Position numbers and translations under genes: made by a program. The notes under the pieces were generated by a model. It had not been told where the DNA came from. It searched no databases and worked only from the letters and a program-made list of their open reading frames with translations. Below are positions 4,929 through 32,644 of a stretch of 64,000 bases of DNA, one piece after another; the stretch's first letter is position 1, and each line of letters opens with the position of its first letter. The stretch is from Macrocystis pyrifera (lineage: Eukaryota; Sar; Phaeophyceae; Laminariales; Laminariaceae): contig JASSKH010000017.1 in NCBI GenBank assembly GCA_031763025.1, positions 7,225,361-7,289,360 on the forward strand, given 5' to 3'.

Positions 4929-5528
4929 TGTGATGCGGGAGAGCAGTAAGGGTTCCAAGGGATGATGATCCACAGAAGAGGTGTGACACACGTGTCTGTG
5001 CTTGGTCAAACCCAGACCTAGTTCTTATTGGCGTTCTCTTATTTTATTGGTGCGAGGCTTGCTCGAAGGGGCAATTGAGAAGAGTGAGAAGGGAGAGGGG
5101 GGGGAAGCAGATGCTTTTTGAAGCCAGAAGTATCATCTGGCTTCAACCGGCTATAATCTACCGGCAAGGGTGCATGCGTCACCCTCAACTTCAGTAGTAC
5201 AGCACCCCGTAAGGGTGCATGCGTTACTCTCAACCTCGATAGTAATACACCCCGTAAAATCTGACGTACGAACATACCACGCGCGTACATCTCCGTCTCT
5301 TCGGCTACTTCGATGCCAGCCTGCGTATCCTTTTAGCAAATACAAATATCTTATTCCAAGCGGGGTACGTACGTGTACGAAGGAATACTAGCCTGCGTGC
5401 CGGACACGACAAACACGAAATATCTTATTCCAGACGGCAAAAGGAGTAAGATCCAACTGGAATAATAATATCTAACGGTCCCTACTGATGATTGGTCTGT
5501 TGAACACAAACCAAGGTACTCTATCACA
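4929..5528 (-). repeat. 3' LTR of copy 1
   Basis: 600 bp with inverted ends TGTGAT/ATCACA. It is homologous over its whole length to the LTRs at 18526, 19401 and 31830. It contains the conserved hairpin GAAGCCAGA/TCTGGCTTC (5120-5144) and an AATAAA-like polyadenylation site near 5043. A local duplication of the GGGTGCATGCGT segment (5166, 5214) makes it longer than the 559-bp LTR. Confidence 0.93.
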
Positions 5529-6806
5529 TTAGCCCCGATGCGCATCTGGCGGTATAAACGGTTGGTCCGGCTGTGCTGTGAAGGGGGAGCCCGACCAATA
5601 GCGGAGGATGTGGGATCGGTGGAGCTGTAGGTCACGTTCGTGTTCCCAAGAAGGGCTAAGGAGTCCGGCCCAGTGTGTTTCGTACATCACGGCGAGAATG
5701 CCTCCCCGGCCACGAACGAGTTGGTGTCCCGAGATCTGGTCGACCTCGAGGCGTTCGGGTGGTGGAGAGATGTCGTCGAAGGTGACGTGGAAGGGCGGGG
5801 ACCTGGTGGAGAAGGGGCTGAGAATGTACTTGGTCAGGTCGGCTGGTAGGTGTTTGGGGATATCGTCGATGTCGTCGGGGTTCCGGCAGGGCTTGCAGCG
5901 GAGAGCGGAGACGCGGTGCTTGGAGTCCCGCCCCGGCATGTCCGAGGGAAGGTCGATGCACAGGAGCTTGTCGTGAAGGGGCCGTCCATCCGGAACGGCC
6001 GAGGCTGGTGCTGGGCCGACGGCAGGGATATTGAACGGGCCGATCCAGTTGAAGGAAAGTTTAGTCTTGAGGACTGTGGCGTCGGTGTTTTTCTTGGCGC
6101 CTTGGCGAATAGTGGCAGCGGTGTTGTAGATCCATGCCCAACCGCCGACAGAGAACGGAGGGGAAAGGCGGAGGGCGTCCACGATGGGAGCGTTGCGGCG
6201 GTCGAGGCGCGAGACGTAGACAGCGTGGAGTTCCCGGGCGGCGCGGTAGGCGCGTTGCTGGGGAGCAGTGGCGAGGTCGATGTAAGCGAGCTGGTCACGG
6301 TTGAGGCTTTGATGTCCGCCGATGTTGGGAGAGTCGAGCACGGTGAGGGGGAGGCGAGGCAGTCGGCCAATGTGCACTCCGTTGGAGGCTAGTCCGGTGG
6401 CGGCGCTGACGGAGTTATTGTAGGCGCTTTCGACGTGAGGAAGATGTATGTCCCAATCGTTTTGTAGTTCGTTTCTGACCATGGCGAGCATCATGGCCAT
6501 GGTGTGGTTGACGCGTTCGACGCCGCCGTTGGTGCAGGGGTGGTAGGAACTCGTGGAGATTTTGTTATTACCGAGGCGCTCGTAGAGGGCGCGGGAGAGT
6601 TTGGCGCAGAATTGAAGGCCGTTGTCGGAAAGGAGAGTAACGAATAATCCCCAGACAGGGATGTAGCGATCGATGTGGATGTCGGCCGTGCCGAACGCTG
6701 TGAACTCGGCTTCAGTAGTGGCATACATGTCAGCGCGGCGGCTGAAACGGTCGGTGAAAAGCAGGATGTAGGCGTTGCCCCGAGGCGCGATGGGTAAGGG
6801 CCCGAT
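5529..6806 (-). pseudogene. integrase core and chromodomain, copy 1
   Basis: DNA strand transfer by the integrase (nuclear cDNA integration). Continuous with the zinc-binding part (6807-7475) except for a TAA that directly follows the first catalytic Asp (SVD, then stop). Downstream are GPLP, a second Asp in SDNGLQFC and the Glu in GGVERVNH, separated by exactly 35 residues, which completes the D,D-35-E signature. The C-terminal part has LSFNWIGPF and then a chromodomain-like end with the aromatic and acidic residues MYETHWAG, SWEHERDL and ILRYW. Chromodomains of this type direct Ty3-type integrases to modified histones. This copy reads the chromodomain in one frame, unlike the plus copy. Confidence 0.88.
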
Positions 6807-7500
6807 TTAGTCGACGCTGACGAGAATACCGGGGCCGTTTGGTAGCGGCAGGGAGAGGGTGGGCCAACGAATTGTTTGGCGCGAAGACTTTCGCGCCTGG
6901 CACTTGAGGCAGCGGCGGAGCCACCAGCGTGTGGATACGTCCATGTCAATGCACCAATAGAAGCGCATAAGCATACTGAGTGTCCGAGCAACACCCAGGT
7001 GGCAAAAGGTGGCGGAGTGGCAAGTGTGTAGGACCCACGGTCGCATCAACATTGGGACGTAAATGCGAGGTGGCGATGTGAGGGGTTGCGGCGTAGTCGT
7101 ACGAGGTTGGCCCAGGGGAGTCATGTGTGGTCGGTGAACGAGAAGGACTGTGTCGTCGTCGGTTGTATGCAGCTGGCCTTTCGCGGCGAGGGCGAGGACC
7201 TCCGAGAAAAGTGGCCGACGGGTCGAGGGAATGTAGTTTGAGAAATCGCCCGGTGGTGAAGGTGAGCCCAAGGAAAGATATTGTATGGTAGCTGAGCAAA
7301 GGGGTTCGGTGCGTTGTTCGCGCGCCCAATCGGTGGAGGTGTAACGCTCAACGCAGGAACTAAGGTGTGGGTCGTCAGCAGACCGGACAATGGGTTCAGG
7401 TAGTGGGAGTGGTTGAGTTGGGGAGGGCGGGGGAGAAGGCCCTGGGGCGGTGGACTGTGGTGGTGGCAGGAACACTGGTGGCGTAGCGCCGGCTGGAGTC
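6807..7500 (-). pseudogene. integrase N-terminal zinc domain, copy 1
   Basis: The HHCC zinc finger of retroviral integrases is visible (LHTCHSATFCHLGVAR, then RCLKCQ) followed by the conserved GPGILVSVD. The frame ends at 6807-6809 with a TAA at the same codon as in the plus copy. Upstream it is linked to the Pro-rich repeat region by a frameshift near 7650. Confidence 0.85.
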
Positions 7501-7912
7501 GCTGGTGAGGGCGAGTCTTGAGCGGCGCCGCGACGAGCTGCATCCGGTCGCCGAGGCAGTGGCCTGGATGCGACGGCAGGTGGACGGCGGTGGGTTGGTG
7601 AAGGTATTGAGACTGCCGTAGTTGACGTTCGACGGCCAAATCCGTAGTCCGTAGTAGTAAGGGGGGGCCCCAGCAGCAGCGGCAGAACGACGACGGGTCC
7701 GAGAAGAAATTAGGCCCGACGAGGTACGAGTGGCCGAAGGTGAGACGCCCAAGGTGGGCGATGGGGAGATGAAGGGTGGCCTGAAAGCCACACCAGCAGG
7801 AGCGCCAGCGGTCACGGCGGCTTCCTCGGAGCTGGAAGGCGATTCGGCGATGGGGCCGAGGATAGAGAGGTGACCGACGAAGGCGCTGCGAAGCGAGTTG
7901 ACGGTGGAGTCT

Positions 7913-8402
7913 TGGGCAAAGCGGGGGCCGGCGGGGAGGCTGCGAGGCGGTCCGGCGGCGGGGTCTTGAGCAAGGTGGGGGCCAGCGGGAGGGCTGCGAG
8001 GCGGTCCAGCGGCGGGATCTTGAGCAAGGCGGAGGCCGGCGGGATGGCTGCGAGGCGATCCAGCGGCGATATCTTGAGCAAGGCGGGGGCCGGCGGGGAG
8101 TCTGCGAGACGATCCAGCGGCAGTGCCTTGGGCAAGGCGGGGCCCGGCGGGAAGGCTGCGAGGTGGTCCAGCGGCGGGATCTTGGGCAAAGCGGGGGCCG
8201 GCGGGAGGGCTGTGAGGCGATCCAGCGGCAGTGTCTTGGGCAAGGCGGGGGGCGGCAGGAGGGCTGTGAGGCGATCCAGCGGCAGTGTCTTGGGCAAGGC
8301 GGGGGCTGGCAGGAAGGCTGCGAGGCGGTCCAGCGGCGGGATCTTGGGCAAGGCGGTGGCCGGCGGGAGGGCTGCGAGGCGATCCAGCGGCGAGATCTTG
8401 AA
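7913..8402 (-). repeat. 54-bp coding tandem repeat, ~9 units
   Basis: Nine units of a 54-bp (18-residue) repeat, frame-read as AGPRLAQDPAAGPPRSPP with small changes. It lies between RNase H and integrase and is in frame with RNase H in this copy. The same array has about 20 units in the plus copy. Because 54 is a multiple of three and the unit is GC-rich, all frames and the opposite strand are open across it; those other frames are shadows. Confidence 0.93.
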
Positions 8403-9673
8403 CGGCGGTAGAAGTCACAATAGAGCAGGAGGTAAGAACCAAGTCCGAGTTGTCCATGCGTGGTCCGTGCCGGCGGAAATCGCCAAAGTCGCTTTCGGTG
8501 CAAGGGAGTGGTGGGATGGTGTTGCAGGGAACGGTTGAGGGTGGGACGAGCCCACCCAAACCGATGCCCGGGGTGAAGGGGTGGATCGGAGTAAAACCGC
8601 AGGCTTGGATAAGGTAGATACCGATGGTGTCGGGGGTGGTGAGGCGGTTGAGTCCCGTGCGGTCGAGATCGGTCGCTGGTTGTGGGAGTCGGGACAGGAA
8701 GTCGGCATTGCCATTACCTGAGCCTTTTCGGTGCTCCAAGGTGTAGGAGTAGGCGGAGAGGAATTCAAGCCAGCGTTGGACGCAAGTGTTGTGTTCACCG
8801 ACTTTAGCGATACTCTCAAGTGCCTTGTGGTCAGAGTAGATGTGGAACTTGGTAGACCAGAGGTGACCGCGGAGGCGTTTGATGGCCCAAACGATGCTAC
8901 CGGCTTCGAGGCCAAAAGGGGGTCCAGGATCGTTCGTTGTGGAGAGTGGTGCGGCTGATAAAGGCGATGGGATGGACGGAACCGTCTGGTTGTTCTTGTT
9001 TGAGAGTCGCGCCAAAACCGTCGATGCTGGGGTCGCAGTATCGGCGAAAATGTCGGGAGTTGTCGGTAACAGCATCCCAGTCTGGGTATACCAAGATCGG
9101 AGGGGTGGCGAGTTCGTGGAGAATCTGGCGAACGATAGTTTCAATTTCCGGGGTGAAAACGAACTTAACGCCTTGTTTGAGCAGGGCGTTAATGGGTCGG
9201 AGCGGAGAGGAGAGGTTCTTCAGGAATTTACGGTAGTATCCAATGCCTCCGAGGAGTGAGCGCACTTGTTTGGTGTTCGTAGGCATGGAGATCTGAGTTA
9301 GGGCGGCAACCTTGTCGGCGTTAGGGCTAACGCCGGAGGAGGAAACGGTGTGTCCCAAAAAGTCGGCGCTGGTAGCGCCAAGCTTGCCTTTGGACGGGGA
9401 GAGCTTGAGGTTGTGTTTTCGAAGGCGTTCGAGAAGGGAGCGGATATTGGCGACGTGGGCCGCGGGGTCGGGGTCGAAAAATATTACGTCGTCGAGGTAG
9501 GCCGCCACGCGGTCAAGGTCTTTGATGACTTTGTTGATGACCTTGACGAACCAGCCAGGCGCGGCGCTGCTGCCTTGGGGCATGACGAGCCACTCGAAGC
9601 GTCGGGTGGGCGTGCAGAAGGCAGTCAGGGGTATGGTGTCCTTGTCGATGGTGATTTGGCGGAACGAAGACAC
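8403..9673 (-). pseudogene. reverse transcriptase palm and RNase H, copy 1
   Basis: From 9673 down: SFRQITIDKDTIPLTAF, motif B (MPQGSSAAPGWF), motif C YLDDVIFF, the GHTVSS and GGIGYYRKF thumb/connection motifs, and RNase H starting CDPSIDGFGATLKQ. A frameshift near 8900 moves reading to the next frame, which carries GLEAGSIVWAIKRLR, IYSDHKALES and NADFLSRLP (the Asp/Glu/Asp/Asp of RNase H). RT copies the element RNA to cDNA and RNase H removes the RNA. All catalytic residues are present, so inactivity comes from frame breaks rather than active-site loss. Confidence 0.92.
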
Positions 9674-10910
9674 GGATCGAACAGGGAGAAGGTGCGGCTT
9701 TTACCGAGGGAGTCGAGAACCTCGTCGACGCGGGGGATGGGCAGTTGGCCCAGGGAGCTGATGACGTTAAGCTTTTTATAGTTTACGGTTATTTGAACGT
9801 TATCGTTTTTCGTGGGAATGGCAACCATAGGGCTGGCGTATGGGGAAGTGGTGTGCTGGATCAGGCCGGCAGCCAGATATTGGTCGAGCACAGCGTCGGC
9901 CTGCTTGGCGAGAGAATAGGGTTAATGCGGTAAGGGCGGGAAAAGACGGGGGCGCTATCCGGGGGGATGGAAATCTTGAACGGAATAAGGGAGCACGAGC
10001 CGAAGTCGGTTTTTGACGTGGAGAAAACGTCGGGGAACTTGGAAAGAACGTCCCCCAGAGCTGTGATGACCGAAGGGGACCAACCAGAACCGCGGAGATC
10101 GAAGGAGATTTCGCGGAGGTGTAGCGGAAGTCGGTCCCAGAGGCGGAGGAAGCCTGTCCGTTGGTCGGCAGTTAGGCGTTCCAGGAGTTTGCGGCAAGAG
10201 GTCTTGGGGGGGTCCGCGGGGGGTGTACCGTCGTCATGCACGGGGATGTTGTCGTGCAGGGCGTGAACGTCGATAACAGCTGAGGCTGGAGGTGACGTTG
10301 CGGGGAGACCTTGCAGTGCTGAGACCGGAATTTGTATGAGGGGAGAGGAGGAAGTCCCCAGAAGGTCGCCTGGTTCAAGATCAATGAAGTCCGAGAGCGG
10401 GATATGTTGGTAGCCGTTGGCGACGAAGATTTCGGTTTCGGAGTCAAGGCCGTCGCGGGGAAGCATGTCAACGAGGTAGTGGCCGGTAGGTGGCGAAATG
10501 CCGAAGGGACGCACCAGATTAACCTGGACGAGAGACGGCGTAGCCGAAAGCGAGACTGCGTGAGCGCCGGCGAACTCGAGGTGTAGGGTGTCGTGGGAAG
10601 GTGGGTTGTCGTGGATGAAAGTGGAGAGGCCTTTCTTGTAAGAAGTGGTTAGGGAGAGCTCGCCAAAGAGCGGTCGCGAAGGGAGGCGAGGCAGGGTTGC
10701 GTACGTGCGTTGTTCGAACCGCATACAGCTATCGCGTTCCAGCAGAACGGGGTGTTGCATAGTCCCATGTGGCACGATGCACGTCCATACGGCGAGCTCG
10801 GCGGAGGGAGTCGTGCAAGAACTGGAAGCTGAGTCGGACGGAAATCGAAGTGAGGAGCGGAGCGGATTCACCAAAGCCGCCCTAGGAACCAGGAGAAGCG
10901 TGTCGTTCAC
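9625..10910 (-). pseudogene. post-protease linker and RT fingers, copy 1
   Basis: Two overlapping frames. 9861-10910 holds the segment from just after the protease active site (VPHGTMQHPVLLERDS, LHLEFAGAHAV, GHYLVDMLPRDGLDSETE) to the RT entry motif RPYRINPIL. 9625-9891 continues with LAAGLIQHTTSPYASPMVAI and SLFD, the RT motif A Asp. A frameshift right after SLFD separates this from the following segment. About 230 bp at the start of this stretch is absent from the plus copy. Confidence 0.85.
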
Positions 10911-11513
10911 AGATGTCCGATGCAGCGTTGTTGCGCTTCATAGGGGCCCAAGCTTCAGCGGAGATGAAGGTCTGGGGAGAGCAGGTGTCCAGGAGAGCTA
11001 CAAGGCCGTAGCGGTTGGATGCGGAGGGTCCACTGTGTACTTTGACCCTGGTCGTGAAGGAGGCGTCGTCGACGGTAACTATACCGCTCGAGAGACCCGG
11101 TCCATGTTCGGCAATGAGGGAGGGAAGTGCAGGGGGAAGAACAGCTTCGGACGAAATGGCAGAGACCAATGCGTGCGGAGGAGTGGCTTCAGGGAGAAAG
11201 GGGGGCAGTAGGTGGTCCAGTGTGGAGGGCACGGTGGGAGATGGTACGGTTGCACTGATTTCGTGAATCCCATTATCGGAGGGTGAGACGCGAGAGGCGT
11301 GGAGAGGTGGCGGGGACGGAGGGGGGGGGTCAAGCTGGTGGCGAATCTTCATGAGGATGTCGCCCACCAGGTTAAGTCCCGGCCAGTGTAAAGGTTGTAA
11401 GGCTCGCTTATCGTCAGACCGGAAGCCGATGCCCCAGACGATATCGTGAGGGCTTGCTTCGGCGAGGAATTTGTCACCGGTGTCTACGAGTTGTAGTAAG
11501 GAGGGAGCCGAGC
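10882..11513 (-). pseudogene. NADAR C-terminal remnant and protease, copy 1
   Basis: The minus-strand frame starts within a NADAR domain: LVDTGDKFLAEASPHDIVWG and IGF, then DILMKIRHQL. The part N-terminal to this is gone with the truncation at about 11513. A Pro/Ser-rich linker leads to the aspartic protease, whose active-site triad reads D-T-C (Asp codon 10987-10989) in LLDTCSPQTFIS instead of the canonical D-T-G. The frame ends at 10882, a few residues before the sequence re-opens in the next frame. Gly to Cys in the triad would be expected to abolish activity. Confidence 0.88.
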
Positions 11514-15545: not shown

Positions 15546-15924
15546 ATTTCCACGCCTACAATGCACTCTGATTTACTAAGCAACGCAATATTTTGTTCCG
15601 CAGCAATGTCATATTTTCATCTTGTGATCACCACCAGTGTGAAAGGAGTGTATGGTGTATCGTGATGAGCAGCAATGTCGGTGCATGGCATAGCGTGAAG
15701 GAGGGCTGCAACGTTGTGTGTCTCAACAAGGCAGTGGGCATCATGGGGGTTAAGTGTGTTGCATTGTCGGCTGCGTTGTTGTGGTTAGTACTCTGTGTTA
15801 TTAAGTGTGATTCCAAATCGGTTACACTCTGTACGGACAAGATAGATGAGGTAAGATGTGCGTATACCCTGGACAATAGAAAGGAAATAGAACTTTGCCG
15901 CTACAGTAGCCCCGAAAAAGCGTG

Positions 15925-16505
15925 TGTCAATGGATATTGTTAACGACAATAGACTGGCAACGCTGGCCAACGATAGACATTGTAAACCACAATAGACTGG
16001 CAACACTCTCTATCGATAGACACTGCTAACCACAATGGACTGGCAACGCTGTCTATCGATAGATGTTGTGAACGACAATAGACTGGCAACGCTGTCTATC
16101 GATAGATATTGTCAGGGAACGATACTTTTCGGCAATGGAGACAGTATGCCTTTGCCCTAACAATGGAGTCACAAGGTTGTCCATAGATGGCCATTGTCCT
16201 GAACAGTAGATGTTGGGGAAGCAACCGTGATAGATATTGTTCGAACAATAGACCAAAACGTTTGCCTATAGATGGCTGCTGCCGCCAACAGTATACACGC
16301 AATTGTATCCATCAATAGCCATCGTCACCCACAGTAGACTGTCGGGCGTGTTTTCGTAATAGACTATTACCTAAACCTATTGTATACCGTGGAATGATGT
16401 ATGCCGATGGCCATTCTTGACGACCGCCGAAGCTTCTATTGCCGCCAACAATAGGTACGCGATTGTGTCCAACAATAGCCATCGCCATCCACAATAGATT
16501 GTTGG
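15925..16505 (-). repeat. 43-bp palindrome satellite, array 2 (inverted)
   Basis: The same unit in the opposite orientation, e.g. ACAATAGACTGGCAACGCTG then TCTATCGATAGA, regular at 15935-16115 and more diverged up to 16505. Confidence 0.8.
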
Positions 16506-16511
16506 CCGGGC

Positions 16512-16915
16512 TCCGGAAAATATGAATCTGACTTACTTCATTTCAGTACGAGACAAAAATCTCGAGTTGAGAAACGGAAAGCTGATAATTTTCTTGTCAA
16601 TGTGGGTGTATTTTCAATATCCAGATTATTTTGAAAGTGTAGTTAATCGAGGACAATGTAAGGGTAACAAATCGAATTTATTTCCGAACAAAACAATAAT
16701 CTAAATAATAGATGACTAGCATCCGAAAAAATAACTCTTACTCACTTGGTTTCAGTATGGGACAAACAAACTCGAGATGAGAAACGGAAAGAATAGAATT
16801 TTCAGCGTAATGTGGTCTGAGTTTAATGATCCACGTTTTATTCAAAGTGGAGTTAATAGACTTGTAGGACAAAGCAAGGGTATTAAATCGAGTCAATTTC
16901 CGAAACTAAGAGCGC
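16512..16915. repeat. ~205-bp AT-rich direct duplication
   Basis: Two diverged units starting at TCCGGAAAATATGAATCTGA (16512) and TCCGAAAAAATAACTCTTAC (16720). Both contain TTTCAGTA(C/T)G, a CTCGAG and GAGAAACGGAAAG. Clearly more AT-rich than the satellite on both sides. Confidence 0.75.
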
Positions 16916-17099
16916 ACACAAGTTGATGACAGTTATTACCAATATCTTGGTGCGCGAGTTTCTATTAATGGCGACATCTGTATATAATGTATTCTTCAAA
17001 AGAGTGTGAGAGCGTATGGTGTCCACAACATGATGACGTCGGTTCAAATTACCACATACATAAAGAACATGGCATACCTCGTACATCGTGGGATGAGTG

Positions 17100-17600
17100 C
17101 AAAATATCCTCGAGATGGCTATCGATGGATAGCTTCTACAATCTATATGGCCGGCAATGGGCGTCGATCGACATCTCGTACAATCTATTGTGGCCGGCAA
17201 CGGCCATCGATATACGTATCGCACAATCTATTGTGGTCGACAATGGCCGTCGATAGACCTCTCGCACAATCTATTGTGGTCCGCAATTGCCATCGATATA
17301 CCTCTCGCACAATCTATTGTGGTCACCAATGACTATCGATAGACATCTCGCACAATCTATCGTGGCCGGCAATGGCCATCGATCGACATCTCGCACATTC
17401 TATTTGTGGCCTGCAGTGGCCATCGATGGACGAAGTTCACCATCTATTGTGTTAGACAATCTCTATCGATCGACAGTATCACCAGTCCATTGTCGCCGAC
17501 AATACCTATCGATAGATACCTTCCACAATCTACTGTCGCAGATAATGTACATCGATAGATTCCCCTCCTTGTCTATTGTCGAAGCAATAGACTATTGTTG
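17100..17600 (+). repeat. 43-bp palindrome satellite, array 3
   Basis: About eleven units in the orientation of array 1, with CTCGCACAATCTATTGTGG as the common junction and CTATCGATAG or a one-base variant in each unit. The spacing stays at 43 bp for the central seven units. Confidence 0.88.
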
Positions 17601-18362: not shown

Positions 18363-18525
18363 CGAACAAGAGCTGCACATTGTCAGATGGCAAACGGAAT
18401 AAAAATAATGGATTACAAATTTGACCATACCAAGCAACCCGGGCTACTGCTGTACCGCTGGAGTAGGGTGTGTGTTCGAACTGCAACGGCACGCGCGCAA
18501 TATGGTGGTACTTTACTGCTGCAAG

Positions 18526-19085
18526 TGTGATGTGGGAGAGCAGTAAGGGTTCCAAGGGATGATGATCCGCAGAAGAGGTGTGACACAGGTGTCTGTGCTT
18601 GGTCAAACCCAGACCTAGTTCTTATTGGCGTTCTCTTATTTTATTGATGGGAGGCTTGCTCGAAGAGGCAAGTGAGAAGAATGAGAAGGGAGGGGGGGGG
18701 GGAAGAAGATGCTTTTTGAAGCCAGAAGTATCATCTGGCTTCAACCGGCTATAACCTACTGGCAAGGGTGCATGCGTCACTCTCAACTTCAATAGTACAA
18801 CACCCCGTAGAACCCGACGTATGGACATACCACGTGCGTACATCTCTGTCTCCTCGGCTACTTAGATGGTAGTCTGCGTATCCTTTCCGCAAAATACAAA
18901 TACCTTATCCTAGACGGTAAACGGGATACGTGTACGGAGGAATACTAACCTGCGCACCGGTATTACAAAATACAAGATATCTTATTCCAGACGGTAAAAG
19001 GAGTAAGATCCAATTGCTAGCATAATATCTAACGGTCCCCACTGGTGCTTGGTCTATATACTATAAACCAGGGTACTCTATCACA
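18526..19085 (-). repeat. inverted LTR of composite
   Basis: 560 bp, TGTGAT to ATCACA, near-identical to the 3' LTR at 31830-32388, with hairpin GAAGCCAGA/TCTGGCTTC at 18718-18742. Confidence 0.95.
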
Positions 19086-19391
19086 TTAGCCCACCCTGGA
19101 TAGCCGTAGATGCAGATCCCACGACGATACAGAGATGTCTACTTAGACATTAGAAACTCGGAAGAGGGGGTCGAAGATACTGCTATTCAAAACAAACGAC
19201 AACCCAATGAGACCATAGACCAACCCACACCTCGTAAATGAGGCTAAGACGCCTCTGGTAGGCAGCATTCGTGCTAGAGAAGGAAAACGTGAAGGAAACG
19301 AAAGAGCAACGACAGAAAAGGATGTCGGCCGCGGGTAGAACACGAGAAACACCAAGGGGCGGCCGGCTTCGGTAGGCCCGATAAAAAAAAA
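19086..19391 (-). mobile_element. inverted 3' internal fragment
   Basis: Reverse complement of about 31530-31829 of the plus copy, including CGGGCCTAC and the GCCGGCCGCCCCTTGGTG block. It ends in the A9 run that matches the T10 run near 31526. It carries no coding part. Confidence 0.9.
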
Positions 19392-19400
19392 CAAAATCAA

Positions 19401-20045
19401 TGTGATAAAGTACCCTGGTTTATAGTGTATAGACCAAGCACCAGCAGGGACCGTTAGATATTATTCTAGTAGTTGGATCTTACTCCTTTTACCGTCTGGA
19501 ATAAGATATCTTGTATTTGTAATACCGGTGCGCAGGTTAGTATTCCTCCGTATGTACACGTATCCCGTTTACAGTCTAGGAATATGGAATAAGATATCTT
19601 GTATTTTGTAATACCGGTGCGCAAGTTAGTATTCCTCCGTACACGTATCCCGTTTACCGTCTAGGATAAGGTATTTGTATTTGCGGAAAGGATACGCAGA
19701 CTACCATCTAAGTAGCCGAGGAGACAGAGATGTACGCACGTGGTATGTCCATACGTCGGGTTCTACGGGGTGTTGTACTATTGAAGTTGAGAGTGACGCA
19801 TGCACCCTTGCCAGTAGGTTATAGCCGGTTGAAGCCAGATGATACTTCTGGCTTCAAAAAGCATCTGCTTCCCCCCCCTCCCTTCTCACTCTTCTCACTT
19901 GCCCCTTCGAGCAAGCCTCGCATCAATAAAATAAGAGAACGCCAATAAGAACTAGGTCTGGGTTTGACCAAGCACAGACACCTGTGTCACACCTCTTCTG
20001 TGGATCATCATCCCTTGGAACCCTTACTGCTCTCCCACGTAACCA
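19401..20045 (+). repeat. 5' LTR of the full-length copy
   Basis: Starts TGTGATAAAGTACC. It is longer than the 3' LTR because a ~73-bp segment (GGAATAAGATATCTTGTATT to the CCGTTTAC block) is duplicated at 19498-19640. The 3' end is eroded: CCCACGTAACC stands where the other LTRs have CCCACATCACA. Hairpin at 19831-19855 and AATAAA near 19925. No convincing tRNA primer site follows. The differences from the 3' LTR show the copy is not recent or has recombined. Confidence 0.9.
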
Positions 20046-22590: not shown

Positions 22591-22632
22591 TGCCTCAACT
22601 GCGGCGGGCAGGACCACAGCGTCAAAACGTGC
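22591..22632 (+). other. CCHC zinc knuckle motif
   Basis: Cys codons 22591, 22600 and 22630 and His codon 22615 with the exact retroviral nucleocapsid spacing. A basic Arg/Ser/Asn-rich frame (e.g. SYRRGQYERTVQRNSKSY, 22725 on) follows and would suit the RNA-binding tail. Confidence 0.85.
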
Positions 22633-23121: not shown

Positions 23122-24933
23122 CCAGCCGATGGTGAAGAGCCGCTCGCGACTTCACCAGCGGCACTACACGCGACCGCGCCGGGTACCTCTCTGGATCCTC
23201 GGGCAGTGTATTTTTCAGGAGCTGCCGGCTCTACTTACTCTCCCGACCTGTCCCCCTCTTTTCTCTCCTCTTCTAACCTATCTTCATTATCAACCCCTCG
23301 ATCTAGGGTTGGCTCCCTTGTTCAAGCGGTTGGTTTGAGGTGTGGGCAGGAGGAGGTGGGCACACCGAGCACTCCCTCAACGCTCCCCTCGGTGTCCCCA
23401 GTCGATGCGCAACGCCGCGCCTTGCCCAACATTGCCGAAATGTCTACGGATCTTGCCAATCTTGTGGGCGACACGACAACAACGGCCAACAGCGGTGTCC
23501 GCTCCCTCTCCGGCTCTGCTCTTCCCCCAGGGCCATCGACTCCCAACTCATCTACGTCCTGTGACGAACGAAGTTATCGGCACACGTCAACCGGCGTCCG
23601 TCGATCCCGGACAGCACATACTTCGACCTCCGTTGGTTCTACAGGATCTCCCGGACTCGTAGCTGCCCGCCCCGTGCTGACCGCACCACTCTCCCTGGGC
23701 CCAAGGACGTCATCCGCGGAAGACTCGACCAAGTCTCCAAGATTATGCCAGGAGCCACCTGTACCGACACCCACACCCCGGTCACGGACTACTACAGGTA
23801 CCGCATGTTCTTCCGAGTTATTCCCTCCTCTGCATACGTTAAATGCTGTTGGCAGGGACTCCCAGGGTGCTCCGTCACGAGCGTCTCGCCGTCACGTACA
23901 TCCTCCCGGGGCCTCGTCACAATCGACCTTACCCCACACGTTTTCGGGGAGCGAAGTCATCTCACCCACGCCTTCCCCGACAACATCCCACACAACGGCC
24001 CCCTCTCCACTCCCCTCGACCCTGAGCCCCTCCCAAATTCTTTTTTTTTGGGATCATTCCTCGGTCTTTTCCCAGTGGTATCCTTCGACGTTCACCGTAG
24101 ACAACGGGCACTACAAATGTGCGGAACAGTACATGATGTCGGAAAAGGCCAAGATTTTCGGCGACACAGCAACTCGCCGGAAGATCATGTCCTCTCCGAA
24201 TCTCGCACAACAAAAACGCCTCGGCCGCTCCGTTTTCAATTTTAATCAAGAGCTTTGGGTACAGCATAGGTACGACATCGTTTTCAAGAGCAATCTCGCC
24301 AAGTTTTCGGCTCCCCCTTTACAACAACAACTAGTAGACACCGGCGACAAGTTCCTCGCCGAAGCAGGTCCTTACAATCTTGTCTGGGGCATCGGCTTCA
24401 GGTGTGACGATACGCGAGCCTTACAACCTCCTCACTGGCCGGGACTCGACCTGTTGGGCGACATCCTCATGAAGATCCGTCACCAGCTTGCCTCCCCCCC
24501 TCCACTCCCGCCTGCCCTCCGCGCCTCTCGCGTCTCACCCTCTGAAAATGGGATCCACGAGATCAGCGCAACCGTTCCAACTTCTACACCCCACTCCACG
24601 CTGGACCACCTACTGCCCCCTTTCCTTCCTGAAGCCACTCCTCCGCACGCACTGGTCTCTGCCATTTCATCCAGAGCTGCTCTCCCTCCTGCGCTCCCCT
24701 CCTTCATTGCCGAACACGGACCAGGCCTCTCGAGCGGTATAGTTACCGTCGACGATGCCTCCTTTACGACCAGGATCAAAGTACACGGTGGACCCTCCGC
24801 ATCCAACCGCTACAGCCTAGTAGCTCTCTTGAACACCGGCTCCCCCCAGACCTTCATCTCCGCTGAAGCTTGGGCCTATATGAAGCACAGCAACGCTGCG
24901 TCGGACATCTGTGAACAACACGCTTCCTCCTAG
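23122..24933 (+). CDS. NADAR domain and aspartic protease segment of polyprotein
   Basis: One open frame. A Ser/Thr/Pro-rich linker (first in-frame ATG at 23440) leads to a complete NADAR domain at 24037-24489. Visible motifs are FFWDHSSVFSQWYP, FTVDNGHYKCAEQYMMSEKA, LGRSVFNFNQELW, LVDTGDKFLAEAGPYNLVWG and DILMKIRHQL. NADAR (YbiA-like) proteins act on NAD/ADP-ribose derivatives; some remove ADP-ribose from guanine in nucleic acid. A second linker precedes the protease LLNTGSPQTFIS (24826 on), where the catalytic Asp is Asn (AAC at 24832), so the protease is dead in this copy. The frame ends with TAG at 24931, where about 230 bp present in copy 1 is deleted. Upstream, the same frame is open back to a TGA at 23119. 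The role of NADAR in the element is inferred only. Confidence 0.88.
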   Translation, partial: PADGEEPLATSPAALHATAPGTSLDPRAVYFSGAAGSTYSPDLSPSFLSSSNLSSLSTPRSRVGSLVQAVGLRCGQEEVGTPSTPSTLPSVSPVDAQRRALPNIAEMSTDLANLVGDTTTTANSGVRSLSGSALPPGPSTPNSSTSCDERSYRHTSTGVRRSRTAHTSTSVGSTGSPGLVAARPVLTAPLSLGPRTSSAEDSTKSPRLCQEPPVPTPTPRSRTTTGTACSSELFPPLHTLNAVGRDSQGAPSRASRRHVHPPGASSQSTLPHTFSGSEVISPTPSPTTSHTTAPSPLPSTLSPSQILFFWDHSSVFSQWYPSTFTVDNGHYKCAEQYMMSEKAKIFGDTATRRKIMSSPNLAQQKRLGRSVFNFNQELWVQHRYDIVFKSNLAKFSAPPLQQQLVDTGDKFLAEAGPYNLVWGIGFRCDDTRALQPPHWPGLDLLGDILMKIRHQLASPPPLPPALRASRVSPSENGIHEISATVPTSTPHSTLDHLLPPFLPEATPPHALVSAISSRAALPPALPSFIAEHGPGLSSGIVTVDDASFTTRIKVHGGPSASNRYSLVALLNTGSPQTFISAEAWAYMKHSNAASDICEQHASS

Positions 24934-24936
24934 CCA

Positions 24937-25980
24937 CCCCTTACAAGGATGACCTCTCCACTTTCATCCACGACAACCGACCTTCGCACGACACCCTACA
25001 CCTCGAGTTCGCCGGCGCTCACGCAGTCTCGCTTTCGGCTACGCCGTCTCTCGTCCAGGTTAATCTGGTCGCGTCCCTCCGGCATTCCGGCACTCACCGA
25101 CCACTACCTCGTTGACATGCTTCCCCGCGACGACCTTGACTCCGAAACCGAAATCTTCGTCGCCAACGGCTACCAACATATCCCGCTCTCGGGATTCATT
25201 GATCTTGAACCAGGCGACCTTCTGGGGACTTCCTCCTCTCCCCTCATACAAATTCCGGTCTCAGCACTGCAAGGTCTCCCCGCAACGTCACCTCCAGCCT
25301 CCTCTGTTATCGACGTTCACGCCCTGCACGACAACATCCCCGTGCATGACGACGGTACACCCCCCGCGGACCCCCCCAAGACCCCTTGCCGCAAACTCCT
25401 GGAACGCCTATCTGCCGACCAACGGACAAGATTCTTCCGCCTCTGGGACCGACTTCCGCTACACCTCCGCGAAATCTCCTTCGACCTCCGCGGTTCTGGT
25501 TGGTCCCCTTCGGTCATCACAGCTCTGGGGGACGAGTTCCCCGACGTTTTCTCCACGTCCATAACCGACTTCGGCTCGTGCTCCCTTATTCCGTTCAAGA
25601 TTTCCATCCCCCCGGATAGCGCCCCCGTCTTTTCCCGCCCTTACCGCATTAACCCTATTCTCGCCAAGCAGGCCGACGCTGTGCTCGACCAATGTCTGGC
25701 TGCCGGCCTGATACAGCACTCCACTTCCCCATACGCCAGCCCTATGGTTGCCATTCCCAAGAAAGACGGCAACGTTCGAATAACCGTGAACTACAAAAAT
25801 CCTAACGCCATCAGCTCCCCGGGCCAACTGCCCATCCCCCGCGTCGACGAGGTTCTCGACTCCCTCGGTAAAAGCCGCGCCTTCTCCCTGTTCGATCTCG
25901 TGTCTTCGTTCCGCCAAATCACCATCGACAAGGACACCATACCCCTGACTGCCTTCTGCACGCCACCCGACTCTTCGAGT
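24937..25980 (+). pseudogene. post-protease linker and RT fingers/motif A
   Basis: After an out-of-frame start (the early part matches copy 1 in another frame), the open frame carries HYLVDMLPRDDLDSETEIF, PADPPKTPCRKLLERLSADQ, the RT entry RPYRINPILAKQADAVLDQ, SPYASPMVAIPKKDGNVRI and SLFDLVSSFRQITIDKD with the motif A Asp at 25894. The frame is lost after LTAFCTPP near 25970, before motif B, by a small deletion relative to copy 1 (CTPTRRFEWLV). Confidence 0.9.
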
Positions 25981-25982
25981 GG

Positions 25983-27290
25983 CTCGTCATGCCCCAAGGC
26001 AGCAGCGCCGCGCCTGGCTGGTTTGTCAAGGTCATCAACGAGGTCACCAAAGACCTTGACCGCGTGGCGGCCTACCTCGACGACGTCATATTTTTCGACC
26101 CCGACCCCGCGGCCCACGTCGCCAATACCCGCTCCCTTCTCGAACGCTTTCGAAAACACAACCTCAAGCTCTCCCCGTCCAAAGCCATGCTTGGCGCTAC
26201 CAGCGCCGACTTTTTGGGACACACCATTTCCTCCTCCGGCGTTAGCCCTAACGCCGACAAGGTTGCCGCCCTAGCTCAGATGCTCATGCCTACGAACACC
26301 AAACAAGTGCGCTCACTCCTCGGAGGCATTGGATACTACCGTAATTTCCTGAAGAACCTCTCCTCTCCGCTCCGACCCATTAACGCCCTGCTCAAACAAG
26401 GCGTTAAGTTCGTTTTCACCCCGGAAATTGAAACTATCGTTCGCCAGATTCTCCACGAACTCGCTACCCCTCCGATCTTGGTATACCCAGACTGGGATGC
26501 CGTTACCGACAACTCCCGACATTTTCGCCGGTACTGCGACCCCAGCATCGACGATTTTGGCGCGACTCTCGAACAAGAACAACCAGACGGTTCCGTCCAT
26601 CCCATCGTCTTTATCAGCCGCACCACTCTCCACAACGAACGATCCTGGACCCCCCTCGGCCTCGAAGCCGGTAGCATCGTTTGGGCCATCAAACGCCTCC
26701 GCAGCCACCTCTGGTCCACCAAGGTCCACATCTACTCTGACCACAAGGTACTTGAGAGTATCGCTAAAGTCGTTGAACACAACGCTCGCGTCCAACGCTG
26801 GCTTGAAACCCTCTCCGCCTACTCTTACACCTTGGAGTACCGAAAAGGCTCAGGTAATGGCAATGCCGACTTCCTGTCCCGACTCCCACTACCAGCGACC
26901 GATCTCGACCGCACCGGACCCAACCGCCTCACCACTCCCGCCATCGGTATCTACCTTATCCAAGCCTGCGGTTTTACTCCAATCGATCCCTTCACCCCGG
27001 GCATCGGTTTGGGTGGGCTCGTCCCACCCTCAACCGCTCCCTGCGACACCATCCCACCACTCCCTTGCACCGAAAACGACTTTGGCGATTTCCGCCTGGA
27101 CGGACCACGCATGGACAACTCGGACTTGGTTCTCACCCCCTGCTCTATTGTGACTTCTACCGCCGTTCAAGATCTCGCCGCTGGATCGCCTCGCAGCCCT
27201 CCCGCCGGCCACCGCCTCGCCCAAGATCCCGCCGCTGGACCGCCTCGCAGCCTCCCCGCCGGCCCCCGCCTTGCCCAAGACACTGCCGCT
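25983..27290 (+). pseudogene. RT palm and RNase H
   Basis: Continues in another frame with MPQGSSAAPGWF (motif B), AAYLDDVIFFDPD (motif C Asp pair at 26079-26084), DFLGHTISSSGV and GGIGYYRNFLKNLSSPL. RNase H follows: DPSIDDFGATLEQEQ, LEAGSIVWAIKRLR, IYSDHKVLES, RKGSGNGNADFLSRLP, giving all four acidic residues. RT-RNase H makes double-stranded cDNA from element RNA in the particle. The frame runs into the repeat array and is shifted near 27290 by a ~25-bp deletion within a repeat unit, which disconnects it from integrase. Confidence 0.93.
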
Positions 27291-28235
27291 GGCCCCGCCT
27301 TGCTCAAGATCCCGCCGCTGGACCGCCTCGCAGCCTTCCCGCCGGCCCCCGCCTTGCTCAAGATTCCGCCGCTGGACCACCTCGCAGCCTTCCCGCCGGC
27401 CCCCGCCTTGCTCAAGATCCCGCCGCTGGACGGCCTCGCAGCCATCCCGCCGCCCCCCGCCTTGCCCAAGACAATGCCGCTGGATCGTCTCGCAGACTCC
27501 CCGCCGGCCCCCTCTTTGCTCAAGATCCCGCCGCTGGATCGCCTCGCAGCCCTCCCTCCGGCCCCCGCCTTGCTCAAGATTCCGCCGCTGGACCGCCTCG
27601 CAGACTCCCTGCCGGCCCCCGCCTTGCTCAGGATCCCGCCGCTGGACCGCCTCGCAGCCCTCCCGCCGGCTACCGCCTTGCCCAAGACACTGCCGCTGGA
27701 CCGCCTCGCAGACTCCCCGCCGGCCCCCGCTTTGCTCAAGATCCCGCCGCTGGACCGCCTCGCAGCCTTCTCGCCGGAACCCGCCTTGCTCAAGATTCCG
27801 CCGCTGGACCGCCTCGCAGCGCTCCCGCCGGCCCCCGCCTTGCTCAGGATCCCGCCGCTGGACCGCCTCGCAGCCCTCCCGCCGGTCCCCGCCTTGCCCA
27901 AGACACTGCCGCTGGACCGCCTGGCAGACTCCCCGCCGGCCCCCGCTTTGCTCAAGATCCCGCCGCTGGACCACCTCGCAGCCATCCCGCCGGGCCCCGC
28001 CTTGCCCAAGGCACTGCCGCTGGATCGTCTCGCAGACTCCCCGCCGGCCCCCGCTTTGCTCAAGATATCGCCGCTGGATCGCCTCGCAGCCATCCCGCCG
28101 GCCCCCGCCTTGCTCAGGATCCCGCCGCTGGACCGCCTCGCAGCCCTCCCGCCGGCCCCCGCCTTGCTCAAGACCCCGCCACCGGACCGCCTCGCAGCCT
28201 CCCCGCCGGCCCCCGCTTTGCCCAAGACTCCACCG
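27165..28235 (+). repeat. 54-bp coding tandem repeat, ~20 units
   Basis: Between RNase H and integrase. Unit core CCGCTGGACCGCCTCGCAGC plus CCTCCCGCCGGCCCCCGCC and TTGCTCAAGATCCCG, 54 bp. The frame that continues into integrase reads GPRLAQDPAAGPPRSLPA. Copy 1 has 9 units. Long frames on the minus strand here are artefacts of repetition. Confidence 0.93.
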
Positions 28236-29329
28236 TCAACTCGCTTCGCAGCGCCTTCGTCGGTCACCTCTCTATCCTCGACCCCATCGCCGAATCGCCT
28301 TCCAGCTCCGAGGAAGCCGCCGTGGCCGCTGGCGCTCCTGCTGGTGTGGCTTTCAGGCCACCCTTCGTCTCCCCATCGCCCACCTTGGGCGTCTCACCTT
28401 CGGCCACTCGTACCTCGTCGGGCCTAATTTCTTCTCGGACCCGTCGTCGTTCTGCCGCTGCTGCTGGGACCCCCCTTACTACTACGGACTACGGATTTGG
28501 CCGTCGAACGTCAACTACGGCAGTCTCAATACCTTCACCAACCCACCGCCGTCCACCTGCCGTCGCACCCAGGCCACTGCCTCGGCGACCGGATGCAGCT
28601 CGTCGCAGCGCCGCTCAAGACTCGCCCTCACCAGCGACTCCAGCCGGCGCTACGCCACCAGTGTTCCTGCCACCACCACAGTCCACCGCCCCAGGGCCTT
28701 CTCCCCCGCCCTCCCCAACTCAACCACTCCCACTACCTGAACCCATTGTCCGGTCTGCTGACGACCCACACCTTAGTTCCTGCGTTGAGCGTTACACCTC
28801 CACCGACTGGGCGCGCGAACAACGCACCGAACCCCTTTGCTCAGCTACCATACGATATCTTTCCTTGGGCTCACCTTCACCACCGGGCGACTTCTTAAAC
28901 TACATTCCCTCGACCCGTCGGCCACTTTTCTCGGAGGTCCTCGCCCTCGCCGCGAAAGGCCAGCTGCATACAACCGACGACGACACAGTCCTTCTCGTTC
29001 ACCGACCACACATGACTCCCCTGGGCCAACCTCGTACGACTACGCCGCAACCCCTCACATCGCCACCTCGCATTTACGTCCCAATGTTGATGCGACCGTG
29101 GGTCCTACACACTTGCCACTCCGCCACCTTTTGCCACCTGGGTGTTGCTCGGACACTCAGTATGCTTATGCGCTTCTACTGGTGGATCGGCATGGACATC
29201 TCCACCCGCTGGTGGCTTCGTCGCTGCCTCAAGTGCCAGGCGCGAAAGTCTTCGCGCCAAACAATTCGTTGGCCCACCCTCTCTCTGCCGCTACCAAACG
29301 GCCCCGGTATTCTCGTCAGCGTCGACTAA
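28236..29329 (+). pseudogene. linker and integrase zinc domain
   Basis: After the repeats comes a Ser/Pro/Arg-rich linker (SSGLISSRTRRRSAAAAG), then RSADDPHLSSCVERYTSTDW, an acidic LHTTDDDTVLLVHRPH and the integrase HHCC finger: LHTCHSATFCHLGVARTL with RCLKCQ. It ends at GPGILVSVD followed by TAA (29327-29329). The Asp before the stop is the first residue of the catalytic triad. The same stop is present in copy 1. Confidence 0.9.
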
Positions 29330-30451
29330 ATCGGGCCCTTACCCATCACGCCTCGGGGCAACGCCTACATCCTGCTTTTCACCGACCGTTTCAGCCGCCG
29401 CGCCGACATGTATGCCACTACTGAGGCCGAGTTCACAGCATCCGGCACAGCCGATATCCTCATCGACCGCTACATCCCTCTCTGGGGATGCCCCGTTACT
29501 CTCCTTCCCGACAACGGTCCACAATTCTGCGTCAAACTCTGCCGCGCCCTCTATGAACGCCTCGGCATCAACAAAATCTCCACGAGTTCCTACCACCCCT
29601 GCACCAACGGCGGCGTCGAACGCGTCAACCACACCATGGCCATGATGCTCGCCATGGTCGGAAACGAACTGCAAAACGATTGGGACTTGCATCTTCCTCA
29701 CGTCGAAAGCGCCTACAACAACTCCGTCAGCCCCGTGACCGGGTTGGCCCCCAACGAACTACACATTGGCCGGCTACCTCGCCTCCCCCTCACCGTGTTC
29801 GACTCTCCCAACATCGGTGGACATCAAAGCCTCAACCGGGACCAGCTCGCTTACATTGACCTCGCTACTGCTCGCCAGCAACGCGCCTACCGCGCCGTCC
29901 GGGAACCCCACGCGGTCTACGTCTCGCGCCTCGACCGCCGCAACGCTCCCATCATGGACGCCCTCCGCTTTTCCCCTCCGTTCTCTGTGGGCGGTTGGGC
30001 ATGGATCTACAACACCGCTGCCACTATTCGCTAGGGTGCCAAGAAAGACACCGACGCCACCGTTCTCAAGACCAAACTCTCCTTCAACTGGATTGGCCCG
30101 TTCAAGATTCTTGCCGTGGGCCCAGCACCAGCCTCGGCCGTTCCGGATGGACGGCCCCTTCACGACAAGCTCCTGTGCATCGACCTTCCCTCGGACATGC
30201 CGGGGCGGGACTCCAAGCACCGCGTCTCCGTTCTCCGCTGCAAGCCCTGCCGGAACCCCGACGACATCGACGATATCCCCAAACACCTACCAGCCGAACT
30301 ATCGAAGTACGTGCTCAGCTCCTTCTCCACCAAGTCCCCGCCCTTCCACGTCACCTTTGACGACATCTCTCCACCGCCCGAACGCCTCGAGGTCGATCAG
30401 ATCTCGGGACACAACAACTCGTTCGTGGTCGGGGAGGCGTTCTCGCCGTGA
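29330..30451 (+). pseudogene. integrase catalytic core and C-terminal part
   Basis: In frame with the zinc domain once the shared TAA is ignored. Visible are IGPLP, AYILLFTDRFSRRADMY, LLPDNGPQFC and GGVERVNHTM (Asp to Glu spacing 35). A TAG at 30032-30034 replaces the Gln codon (CAA) of copy 1. The GPF/Y-like LSFNWIGPFK segment and the start of the chromodomain (PPERLEVDQISGH) follow. The frame ends at 30449-30451 after a local change (HNNSFVVGEAFSP) that does not occur in copy 1. Confidence 0.92.
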
Positions 30452-30999: not shown

Positions 31000-31829
31000 C
31001 AGTAGCTGATGGTGGGCGGATGCGTTAGATTGTTGTGTACTAGTTTCAGGCCGGGATGTTCTGTGCGTTCCCTGTCTGGGACACGCGTTCGCCTTGTGTG
31101 TTGATTCCATCTAGCACCCGACCTTCCGTTTTCTTCACTAGGACGCAATTCGCAACAAAAAGTGTTGTCGTACCTCCAGGGTCTACCTTTCTGTTGTACC
31201 TTCTCTTTGCCTTTCCTTAGAGGTGGTCTTTCGGTCTGCTGGTCCTTCTTATTTTTCTTCTTTCTTCTTTTTCCTTCCTTCTTGTCTCTGTTCTTTTTCT
31301 TTTTTTTCTCTCCTTTCTTCTTTGTTCCTTTTCTTCGTTTTTTTTTGTTTTGGTTTAAAAAACACCTAGGGACCTTGTTGTGTCCTTCTCGCTCTAGCTT
31401 CATGTGGACTTCGTCCCTACATCAAGTCTATTGCCGGCGTTTCCATTAGCTTCCTAGTTCGTGCGTTACCTTGCTCGATCTTTCCCACCTTTCTCATAGG
31501 CCTACAACGCGGATAGCCACGACTTTTTTTTTTATCGGGCCTACAGAAGCCGGCCGCCCCTTGGTGTTTCTCGTATTTTGCCGCGGCCGACATCCTTTTC
31601 TGTCGTTGCTCTTTCGTTTTCTTCACGTTTTCCTTCTCTGGCACGAATGCTGCCTACCAGAGGCGTCTTAGCCTCATTTACGAGGTGTGGGTTGGTCTAT
31701 GGTCTCATTGGGTTGTCGTTTGTTTTGAATAGCAGTATCTTCGACCCCCTCTTCCGAGTTTCTAATGTCTAAGTAGCCATCTCTGTATCGTCGTGGGATC
31801 TGCATCTACGGCTATTCAGGTTGGGCTAA
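31000..31829 (+). other. 3' untranslated region of the element
   Basis: Non-coding. 31160-31350 is strongly pyrimidine-rich. Part (31530-31829) is duplicated in inverse at 19086-19391. No clear polypurine tract stands at the LTR edge: the last bases are GGTTGGGCTAA. Confidence 0.7.
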
Positions 31830-32388
31830 TGTGATAAGAGTACCCTGGTTTATAGTATATAGACCAAGCACCAGTAGGGACCGTTAGATATTATTCTAGT
31901 AATTGGATCTTACTCCTTTTACCGTCTGGAATAAGATATCTTGTATTTTGTAATACCGGTGCGCAGGTTAGTATTCCTCCGTATACGTATCCCGTTTACC
32001 GTCTAGGATAAGGTATTTGTATTTGCGGAAAGGATACGCAGACTACCATCTAAGCAGCCGAGGAGACAGAGATGTACGCACGTGGTATGTCCATACGTCG
32101 GGTTTTACGGGGTGTTGTACTATTGAAGTTGAGAGTGACGCATGCACCCTTGCCAGTAGGTTATAGCCGGTTGAAGCCAGATGATACTTCTGGCTTCAAA
32201 AGCATCTGCTTCCCCCCTCCCTCCCTTCTCACTCTTCTCGCTTGCCTCTTCGAGCAAGCCTCGCATCAATAAAATAAGAGAACACCAAATAAGAACTAGG
32301 TCTGGGTTTGACCAAGCACAGACACCTGTGTCACACTTCTTCTGTGGATCATCATCCCTTGGAACCCTTACTGCTCTCCCACATCACA
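31830..32388 (+). repeat. 3' LTR of the full-length copy
   Basis: 559 bp, TGTGATAAGAGTACC to CTCCCACATCACA. Contains AATAAA at 32268-32273 and the hairpin GAAGCCAGA/TCTGGCTTC at 32173-32197. Confidence 0.95.
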
Positions 32389-32644
32389 CAAGCTCTTCAT
32401 ATTATTAGACGGGTGGTATAAGGCTACATTTAGATTTCGTTTAGTACTGGTAGATCGCTGTATATACTGGAATCAGTAGTCAAGTCCCCTGAAGGTCAAT
32501 GCTGGTATGCTGGTACGAATAGCTCTTCTTCTCTCCCTTCGGCAACGCAGTGTTCCGTATAGAACAACACCTAAAGCTGTACCAGGTACTGCTCTATGTA
32601 GCAATCAGAAGGTACTGCTGTTAGAACACTACGTTTTACCACTA

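What the first reader, a model, noticed from the sequence alone, without database searches (positions are those of the whole stretch)
23122..24933. NADAR domain built into a Ty3-type retrotransposon polyprotein
Seen: a complete YbiA/NADAR-type domain (24037-24489) in one frame with the protease, between the CCHC gag part and RT. The second copy at 11356-11513 keeps its C-terminal part in the same place. Known: NADAR proteins act on ADP-ribose/NAD derivatives and some reverse ADP-ribosylation of guanine in nucleic acid, countering DarT-like toxins. Inference: the element may carry an eraser that protects its RNA/cDNA or particle proteins from ADP-ribosylation-based host defence, or it may bind ADP-ribose to guide the particle. 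I cannot confirm whether this architecture is already described.
Basis: partly seen in the sequence, partly recalled or inferred. Interest (0 to 1): 0.92.

Follow-up and report, generated by a model that had tools for sequence, protein, structure and literature searches.

The report
ADP-ribose eraser domain in algal retrotransposon
A Ty3-type jumping gene, probably from a brown alga, carries a complete enzyme domain of a kind known to strip ADP-ribose off guanine; such a fusion was reported in the brown alga Ectocarpus in 2025, and here it recurs in many copies of another genome, mostly with its catalytic residues intact.

The parts
19399..20043 (+). 5' LTR of copy A (approximate ends)
   Evidence: Direct repeat with 31828-32389: 97.4% over 457 nt and 94.6% over 185 nt
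22591..22632 (+). CCHC zinc knuckle (gag nucleocapsid type)
   Evidence: Motif C-x2-C-x4-H-x4-C
23122..24933 (+). 603-codon open frame: Ser/Pro/Thr-rich stretch, NADAR, linker, protease motif
24043..24489 (+). NADAR domain (PF08719, YbiA type)
24826..24843 (+). retropepsin-like protease motif; active-site Asp replaced in this copy
   Evidence: most other copies read LLDTGS
25753..26228 (+). reverse transcriptase (RVT_1), split over two frames in this copy
   Evidence: PF00078 in two ORFs, 21.6 bits (below cut-off) and 52.5 bits; YLDDV at 26073-26087
26511..26822 (+). RNase H (RT_RNaseH)
   Evidence: PF17917, 82.1 bits
27286..28227 (+). 54-nt (18-codon) tandem array between RNase H and integrase, 17.5 copies
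29078..29254 (+). integrase zinc-binding domain (H2C2)
   Evidence: PF17921, 48.9 bits
29348..29599 (+). integrase core (rve), below curated cut-off
   Evidence: PF00665, 29.4 bits, cut-off 32.6, E 1e-6
31828..32389 (+). 3' LTR of copy A (approximate ends)
4929..5535 (-). 3' LTR of copy B
   Evidence: 81-82% to the LTRs of copy A and of the fragment at 18525-19391
5532..11511 (-). 5'-truncated copy B: weak integrase core, H2C2, repeat array, RNase H, RT, an altered protease motif, C-terminal third of NADAR
11332..11493 (-). C-terminal NADAR remnant in copy B
   Evidence: PF08719 54 bits, profile 110-162
18525..19391 (-). 3' end (LTR plus about 300 nt) of a third copy, abutting the 5' LTR of copy A
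   Evidence: 96.7% over 869 nt to 32389-31525

Best explanation
It is a Ty3/Gypsy LTR retrotransposon lineage whose polyprotein carries a catalytic-type NADAR domain between the nucleocapsid knuckle and the protease. Most likely mechanism: the domain is made as part of the Gag-Pol (or Pol) precursor, enters the particle with protease and RT, and hydrolyses ADP-ribose from guanine bases of the element's RNA or nascent cDNA, so that reverse transcription is not blocked by that damage, whether inflicted by a host defence or arising incidentally. This is the position and logic of betaretroviral dUTPase, a nucleic-acid-hygiene enzyme N-terminal of the protease. Shown here: domain identity, predicted fold, catalytic residues, fixed place in the polyprotein, signs of selection, a shared deep split with the protease. 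Inferred: expression, packaging, activity, substrate, benefit.
Against: No enzymatic test of any retrotransposon NADAR is known to me. No host guanine ADP-ribosyltransferase could be looked for: the genome searches for DarT and PARP did not complete. Conserved pocket residues do not fix the substrate; NADARs also act as N-glycosidases on riboflavin intermediates and may act on soluble ADP-ribose derivatives. The YbiA-type NADARs tested elsewhere protect poorly against DarT1 (PMC11125620, passages). The window copy is decayed. 12 of 70 copies have a stop inside the domain. E109 ranks only 42nd of 150 columns in conservation. The genome copies were picked by profile score, which favours intact domains. 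dS of 2.66 is near saturation, so the ratio is rough.
Confidence: 0.45

Rival explanations
1. The domain is an active hydrolase, but on small molecules: it clears free ADP-ribose derivatives, NAD-cap products or RNA-repair by-products in or near the particle.
For: PMC9503650 (passages) argues that phage NADARs mostly target low-molecular-weight derivatives and that NADARs associate with RNA repair; the pocket residues would be conserved equally under this reading.
Against: The same paper favours macromolecular substrates for NADARs inside eukaryotic RNA-virus polyproteins, the closer analogue; fusion to the particle polyprotein suits a nucleic-acid substrate better (inference).
Confidence: 0.25
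2. A non-catalytic reader: the domain binds ADP-ribose marks (for example on chromatin or host granules) to guide particles or the integration complex.
For: Position in the polyprotein; the Ectocarpus lineage is reported to have a putative chromodomain reader, so targeting by readers is used.
Against: Residues needed for hydrolysis are well kept in relatives: K37 60 of 61, E30 47 of 49, E109 64 of 69. E109 is less strict than the tryptophan W117 (70 of 70), so this is not decisive.
Confidence: 0.12
3. N-glycosidase on riboflavin-pathway intermediates, as in YbiA, carried along without a role in transposition.
For: YbiA-type glutamate and fold.
Against: Retention across at least five element lineages with signs of purifying selection speaks against a passenger; I see no reason for a retroelement to treat riboflavin intermediates.
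Confidence: 0.06
4. A structural or RNA-processing role: the domain is a folded module whose enzymatic activity on ADP-ribose is secondary.
For: Nematode SNA-3 shows NADAR domains serving RNA processing with unknown substrate (PMC9303266, passages).
Against: Pocket conservation; SNA-3 itself needs pocket residues.
Confidence: 0.12

Closest known systems
Ectocarpus NADAR-bearing Gypsy lineage (Gypsy-12_Ec32), PMC12477816
   Same: [quoted passage not shown] the paper says all families of one of four lineages carry it. Two Ectocarpus sp. CCAP 1310/34 proteins with NADAR plus RNase H, one also with RT, came up here (P0196, P0279).
   Different: Different genome (537 Mb, unnamed; Ectocarpus is 200 Mb per the paper). 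RT phylogeny against Gypsy-12 not tested. The window domain is 42% identical to the Ectocarpus P0196 domain.
Tx1 LINE ORF1 of Crassostrea gigas with NADAR (reported in PMC12477816)
   Same: NADAR inside a retrotransposon protein
   Different: Non-LTR element, ORF1, reported as divergent; not examined here.
NADARs inside positive-strand RNA-virus polyproteins (PMC9503650)
   Same: Domain embedded in a replicative polyprotein of an RNA-based element (passages)
   Different: Viruses with RNA-dependent RNA polymerase, not reverse-transcribing; the word retrotransposon does not occur in that paper's main text.
Betaretroviral dUTPase-Pro (PMC1224870)
   Same: Nucleic-acid-hygiene enzyme N-terminal of protease (passages)
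   Different: A different enzyme with a different substrate; analogy only.
DarT1-linked NADAR antitoxins (PMC11543638)
   Same: NADAR superfamily; Glu and Lys of the pocket
   Different: They carry Asp where this domain has the YbiA-type Glu; no DarT match appeared among the window ORFs scanned with Pfam, which are not all its ORFs.

Membership tests
NADAR superfamily, YbiA subfamily | Significant full-length profile match (PF08719) | tested here: met
   135.6 bits, positions 1-162 of 163
NADAR superfamily, YbiA subfamily | YbiA fold | tested here: met
   [not shown]
NADAR superfamily, YbiA subfamily | Pocket Glu and Lys plus the subfamily Glu (Asp in BC4488, His in phage type) | tested here: met
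   E30, K37, E109 present in the window copy; 20 of 21, 22 of 23 and 22 of 23 retro rows with a letter there, window included
NADAR superfamily, YbiA subfamily | ADP-ribosyl-guanine hydrolase or N-glycosidase activity | not testable with these tools
   Needs purified protein; at pocket position 114 the window copy lacks the Asp that 20 of the 22 other retro rows carry
Ty3/Gypsy LTR retrotransposon | Pair of LTRs | tested here: met
   19399-20043 and 31828-32389, 95-97%; no clear target-site duplication seen by eye
Ty3/Gypsy LTR retrotransposon | Order PR, RT, RNase H, integrase | tested here: met
   PR 24826, RT 25753-26228, RNase H 26511-26822, H2C2 29078-29254, rve 29348-29599 (rve below cut-off)
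[quoted passage not shown]
Ectocarpus NADAR-Gypsy lineage (Gypsy-12_Ec32) | Putative C-terminal chromodomain on integrase | tested here: inconclusive
   Not seen in the window ORFs scanned at E 0.1, nor in L131, whose frame holds the integrase, at E 0.5. In L135 Chromo 13.7 bits, E 0.061, under cut-off; the four best PDB hits of that stretch are chromodomain proteins at E about 0.5, not significant
Ectocarpus NADAR-Gypsy lineage (Gypsy-12_Ec32) | RT groups with that lineage | not tested
   No Gypsy-12 sequence was held
DarT1-linked NADAR antitoxin (BC4488 type) | Catalytic Asp at the last-strand position | tested here: not met
   Glu instead (E109)
DarT1-linked NADAR antitoxin (BC4488 type) | Operon with DarT | not tested
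   Genome search for DarT did not complete

The most novel reading that the evidence does not exclude
A brown-algal retrotransposon lineage packages a guanine de-ADP-ribosylase because its hosts attack foreign RNA or cDNA by ADP-ribosylating guanine: a nucleic-acid ADP-ribosylation defence against retroelements in multicellular stramenopiles, with the element carrying the antidote in its particle, as the NADAR antitoxin counters DarT in bacteria.
Probability: 0.2. Interest if true: 0.88.

Novelty: new member of a known kind. Interest (0 to 1): 0.5.

Why it matters
The role of NADARs outside DarT operons is described as unclear (PMC11125620, passages). Element lineages that have kept the domain, mostly with its pocket, across at least five branches give a tractable case: each young copy is a fresh trial of whether the pocket matters. 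If the substrate is element RNA or cDNA, it would point to nucleic-acid ADP-ribosylation as a pressure on retroelements in algae; none of the seven papers I opened tests that.

Tried and rejected
Chance or artefact: rejected (150 of 150 scored places over cut-off). Bacterial contamination: rejected, since a protease query matches downstream on the same strand in 69 of 70 copies and public frames run NADAR into RT. A donor among IMG/VR contigs: 409 relatives of the 45-row NADAR alignment, best 80 kept, all 49% or less identical to the window domain; none of the 80 loci matched the element's protease or pol queries. Phage NADARs are common (670 of 50,697 records, all under 60% identity) but were not the nearest kin. 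Single origin of the retro NADARs: not rejected (p-AU 0.303) but not shown: the best tree needs 3 changes and 0 of 200 bootstrap trees hold the 22 rows as one clade; two metagenome rows of my bacterial group (P0009, P0037) and one EukProt row (P0139) fall among them. From that tree I left out five rows of 76: two flagged as long, two other divergent rows, and retro_P0003. Four viral loci gave no usable frame by my motif filter and were not in the 76. Tree of NADAR against protease: 16 proteins tried, P0137 dropped; four protease rows, the window's among them, were under half filled; one search was a failed first try. Print searches, with the number listed of the number found: NADAR+retrotransposon 20 of 104, NADAR+Gypsy 15 of 39 (47), DUF1768+retrotransposon 0 (48), NADAR+brown alga 15 of 80 (49), a five-term search with ADP-ribosylation and dUTPase 10 of 62 (78), 'NADAR domain' 15 of 15 (85). 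Of the seven papers I opened (in passages or sections), only PMC12477816 reports NADAR in an LTR retrotransposon; unlisted papers were not seen. Host naming failed: no tool names the genome; brown alga is inferred from the Ectocarpus relatives, and the 537-Mb size recalls Saccharina japonica from memory only. Window-type copies in the own genome could not be counted, as that search did not complete. Pfam on ten further window ORFs outside the elements gave nothing above cut-off.

Full report
What is there. The 603-codon frame at 23122-24933 holds a full NADAR domain (24043-24489; PF08719, 135.6 bits, E 2.5e-39), then a linker and a retropepsin-like motif in the same frame (24826-24843). A CCHC knuckle lies upstream at 22591-22632, RT downstream (motif 26073-26087), followed by RNase H, a 54-nt tandem array, and the integrase zinc and core domains, the core below its cut-off. 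LTRs at 19399-20043 and 31828-32389 are 95-97% alike. The order is that of a Ty3/Gypsy element. A second, minus-strand copy (4929-11511) is truncated at its 5' side within the NADAR domain and keeps its C-terminal third.

State of this copy. Copy A is decayed: its protease active-site aspartate is replaced, RT is split over two frames and integrase sits in a frame other than that of RNase H, a stretch of about 237 nt that copy B has is absent just after the protease, and one pocket position of NADAR (114) lacks the Asp that 20 of the 22 other retro rows carry. In the SNA-3 work the mutated NADAR residues, chosen as homologues of YbiA's critical ones, include an aspartate three residues before a tryptophan (PMC9303266, passages), the same spacing as position 114 and W117 here; that they are equivalent is my inference. 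So the window shows the architecture, not a working element.

Family in the same genome. The window lies in a 537-Mb assembly. A PF08719 search there gave 1264 candidate places; the best 150 were scored and all 150 passed the cut-off. I examined 70 of the 150 (rows 1-50 and 131-150). They fall in two subfamilies, 39 g1 and 31 g2; none is nearest to the window type. A protease query matched downstream on the same strand in 69 of 70 and a pol query (connector and start of RT) in 67 of 70; a CCHC knuckle was seen upstream within the short fetched flank in 21 of 70. Stops inside the domain: 12 of 70. E30, K37 and E109 are all kept in 63 of 70 (E30 65, K37 68, E109 70). Because the copies were ranked by profile score, these figures favour intact domains; 4 of the 5 losses of E30 are in the lowest-ranked 20.

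Relatives elsewhere. The NADAR-protease part finds public proteins with the same layout: 90 proteins among 7791 candidates and 73 among the 7992 candidates that were scored, a capped set, not all of them retroelements. hmmscan of eight of them shows NADAR before RT in one frame in 8 of 8, with RNase H in 6 of 8; in five of the eight the NADAR match lacks its N-terminal part at the start of the frame (P0237, P0247, P0248, P0262, P0255), and in P0279 and P0246 it begins within the frame but at profile positions 41 and 9; P0279 is from Ectocarpus sp. CCAP 1310/34. A second Ectocarpus protein joins NADAR to RNase H (P0196). Among 84 proteins searched, 72 held a NADAR match: W117 70 of 70, K37 60 of 61, E30 47 of 49, E109 64 of 69, D114 65 of 70 of those with a residue there.

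Selection and descent. NG86 on 28 of 31 domain sequences (three with stops dropped): within g1 dN/dS 0.40 (210 pairs), within g2 0.44 (15 pairs); between g1 and g2 mean dN 0.45 over 126 pairs, mean dS 2.66 and ratio 0.17 over the 62 pairs not saturated; all 27 pairs with the window copy were saturated. The within-subfamily ratios mix selection with decay after insertion, and a dS of 2.66 is rough. NADAR and protease trees of 15 rows both hold the window type, P0124, P0125 and g2 apart from g1, P0131 and the ENA group (96/95 and 98/95), although four protease rows, the window's included, were under half filled. This fits one old acquisition carried along with the protease; two acquisitions at the same place in two element lineages would give the same split. 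In a 71-row tree the 22 retro NADARs lie in one supported set (96/98) with P0009, P0037 (metagenome proteins of my bacterial group) and P0139 (EukProt); the retro rows are not one clade in the best tree or in any of 200 bootstrap trees, but one clade is not rejected (p-AU 0.303). The published suggestion of a bacterial origin fits; the donor and the number of acquisitions stay open.

Prior art. PMC12477816 (first part of section 5 and passages; [quoted passage not shown] Its supplements were not seen. PMC9503650 (passages) surveys NADARs in viruses, including RNA-virus polyproteins; a word search of its main text for retrotransposon gave nothing. So the kind is known; this is a further member with added evidence.

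How it likely works. NADARs take ADP-ribose off guanosine in DNA and RNA (PMC11543638, sections 8 and 12 and passages; PMC11125620 and PMC11833690, passages). A domain between nucleocapsid and protease would be made with the particle's enzymes; betaretroviruses keep dUTPase at that place (PMC1224870, passages). I therefore favour an enzyme that keeps guanines of the element's RNA or cDNA free of ADP-ribose. Everything after 'conserved pocket, fixed place' is inference. Rivals: small-molecule ADP-ribose clearance, reader function, YbiA-like glycosidase, structural or RNA-processing role.

Noticed in passing
27286-28227 (+); matching array about 7778-8479 in copy B (-): 54-nt, 18-codon Pro/Leu-rich tandem array between RNase H and integrase, 17.5 copies in copy A and a shorter array in copy B; an expandable spacer in pol.
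   Followed up: partly
18525-19391: 3' LTR plus about 300 nt of a third copy in minus orientation abuts the 5' LTR of copy A.
   Followed up: no
19497-19670: Internal duplication of about 89 nt in the 5' LTR of copy A; the BLAST pieces overlap in the 3' LTR, which suggests a single copy there.
   Followed up: no
15241-17578: Arrays of 43-nt repeats, many units with ATCGATAGA.
   Followed up: no
32717 to about 33.8k: Long low-complexity array (85 overlapping register copies at 60% or more), overlapping a roughly 115-nt repeat that also occurs near 3.2k, 44.9k, 50.3k, 53.0k and 53.6k on either strand.
   Followed up: no
P0006: A partial protein filed under a Paracoccaceae MAG is 81% identical to the window NADAR over 66% of it; possibly algal retrotransposon DNA binned as bacterial.
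   Followed up: no
P0282: PIF1-type helicase with a C-terminal NADAR domain in one metagenome protein.
   Followed up: partly
P0143, P0150, P0193 and others: NADAR together with a macrodomain (PF01661) in one protein; PMC9503650 reports such tandems in viruses (passages).
   Followed up: no
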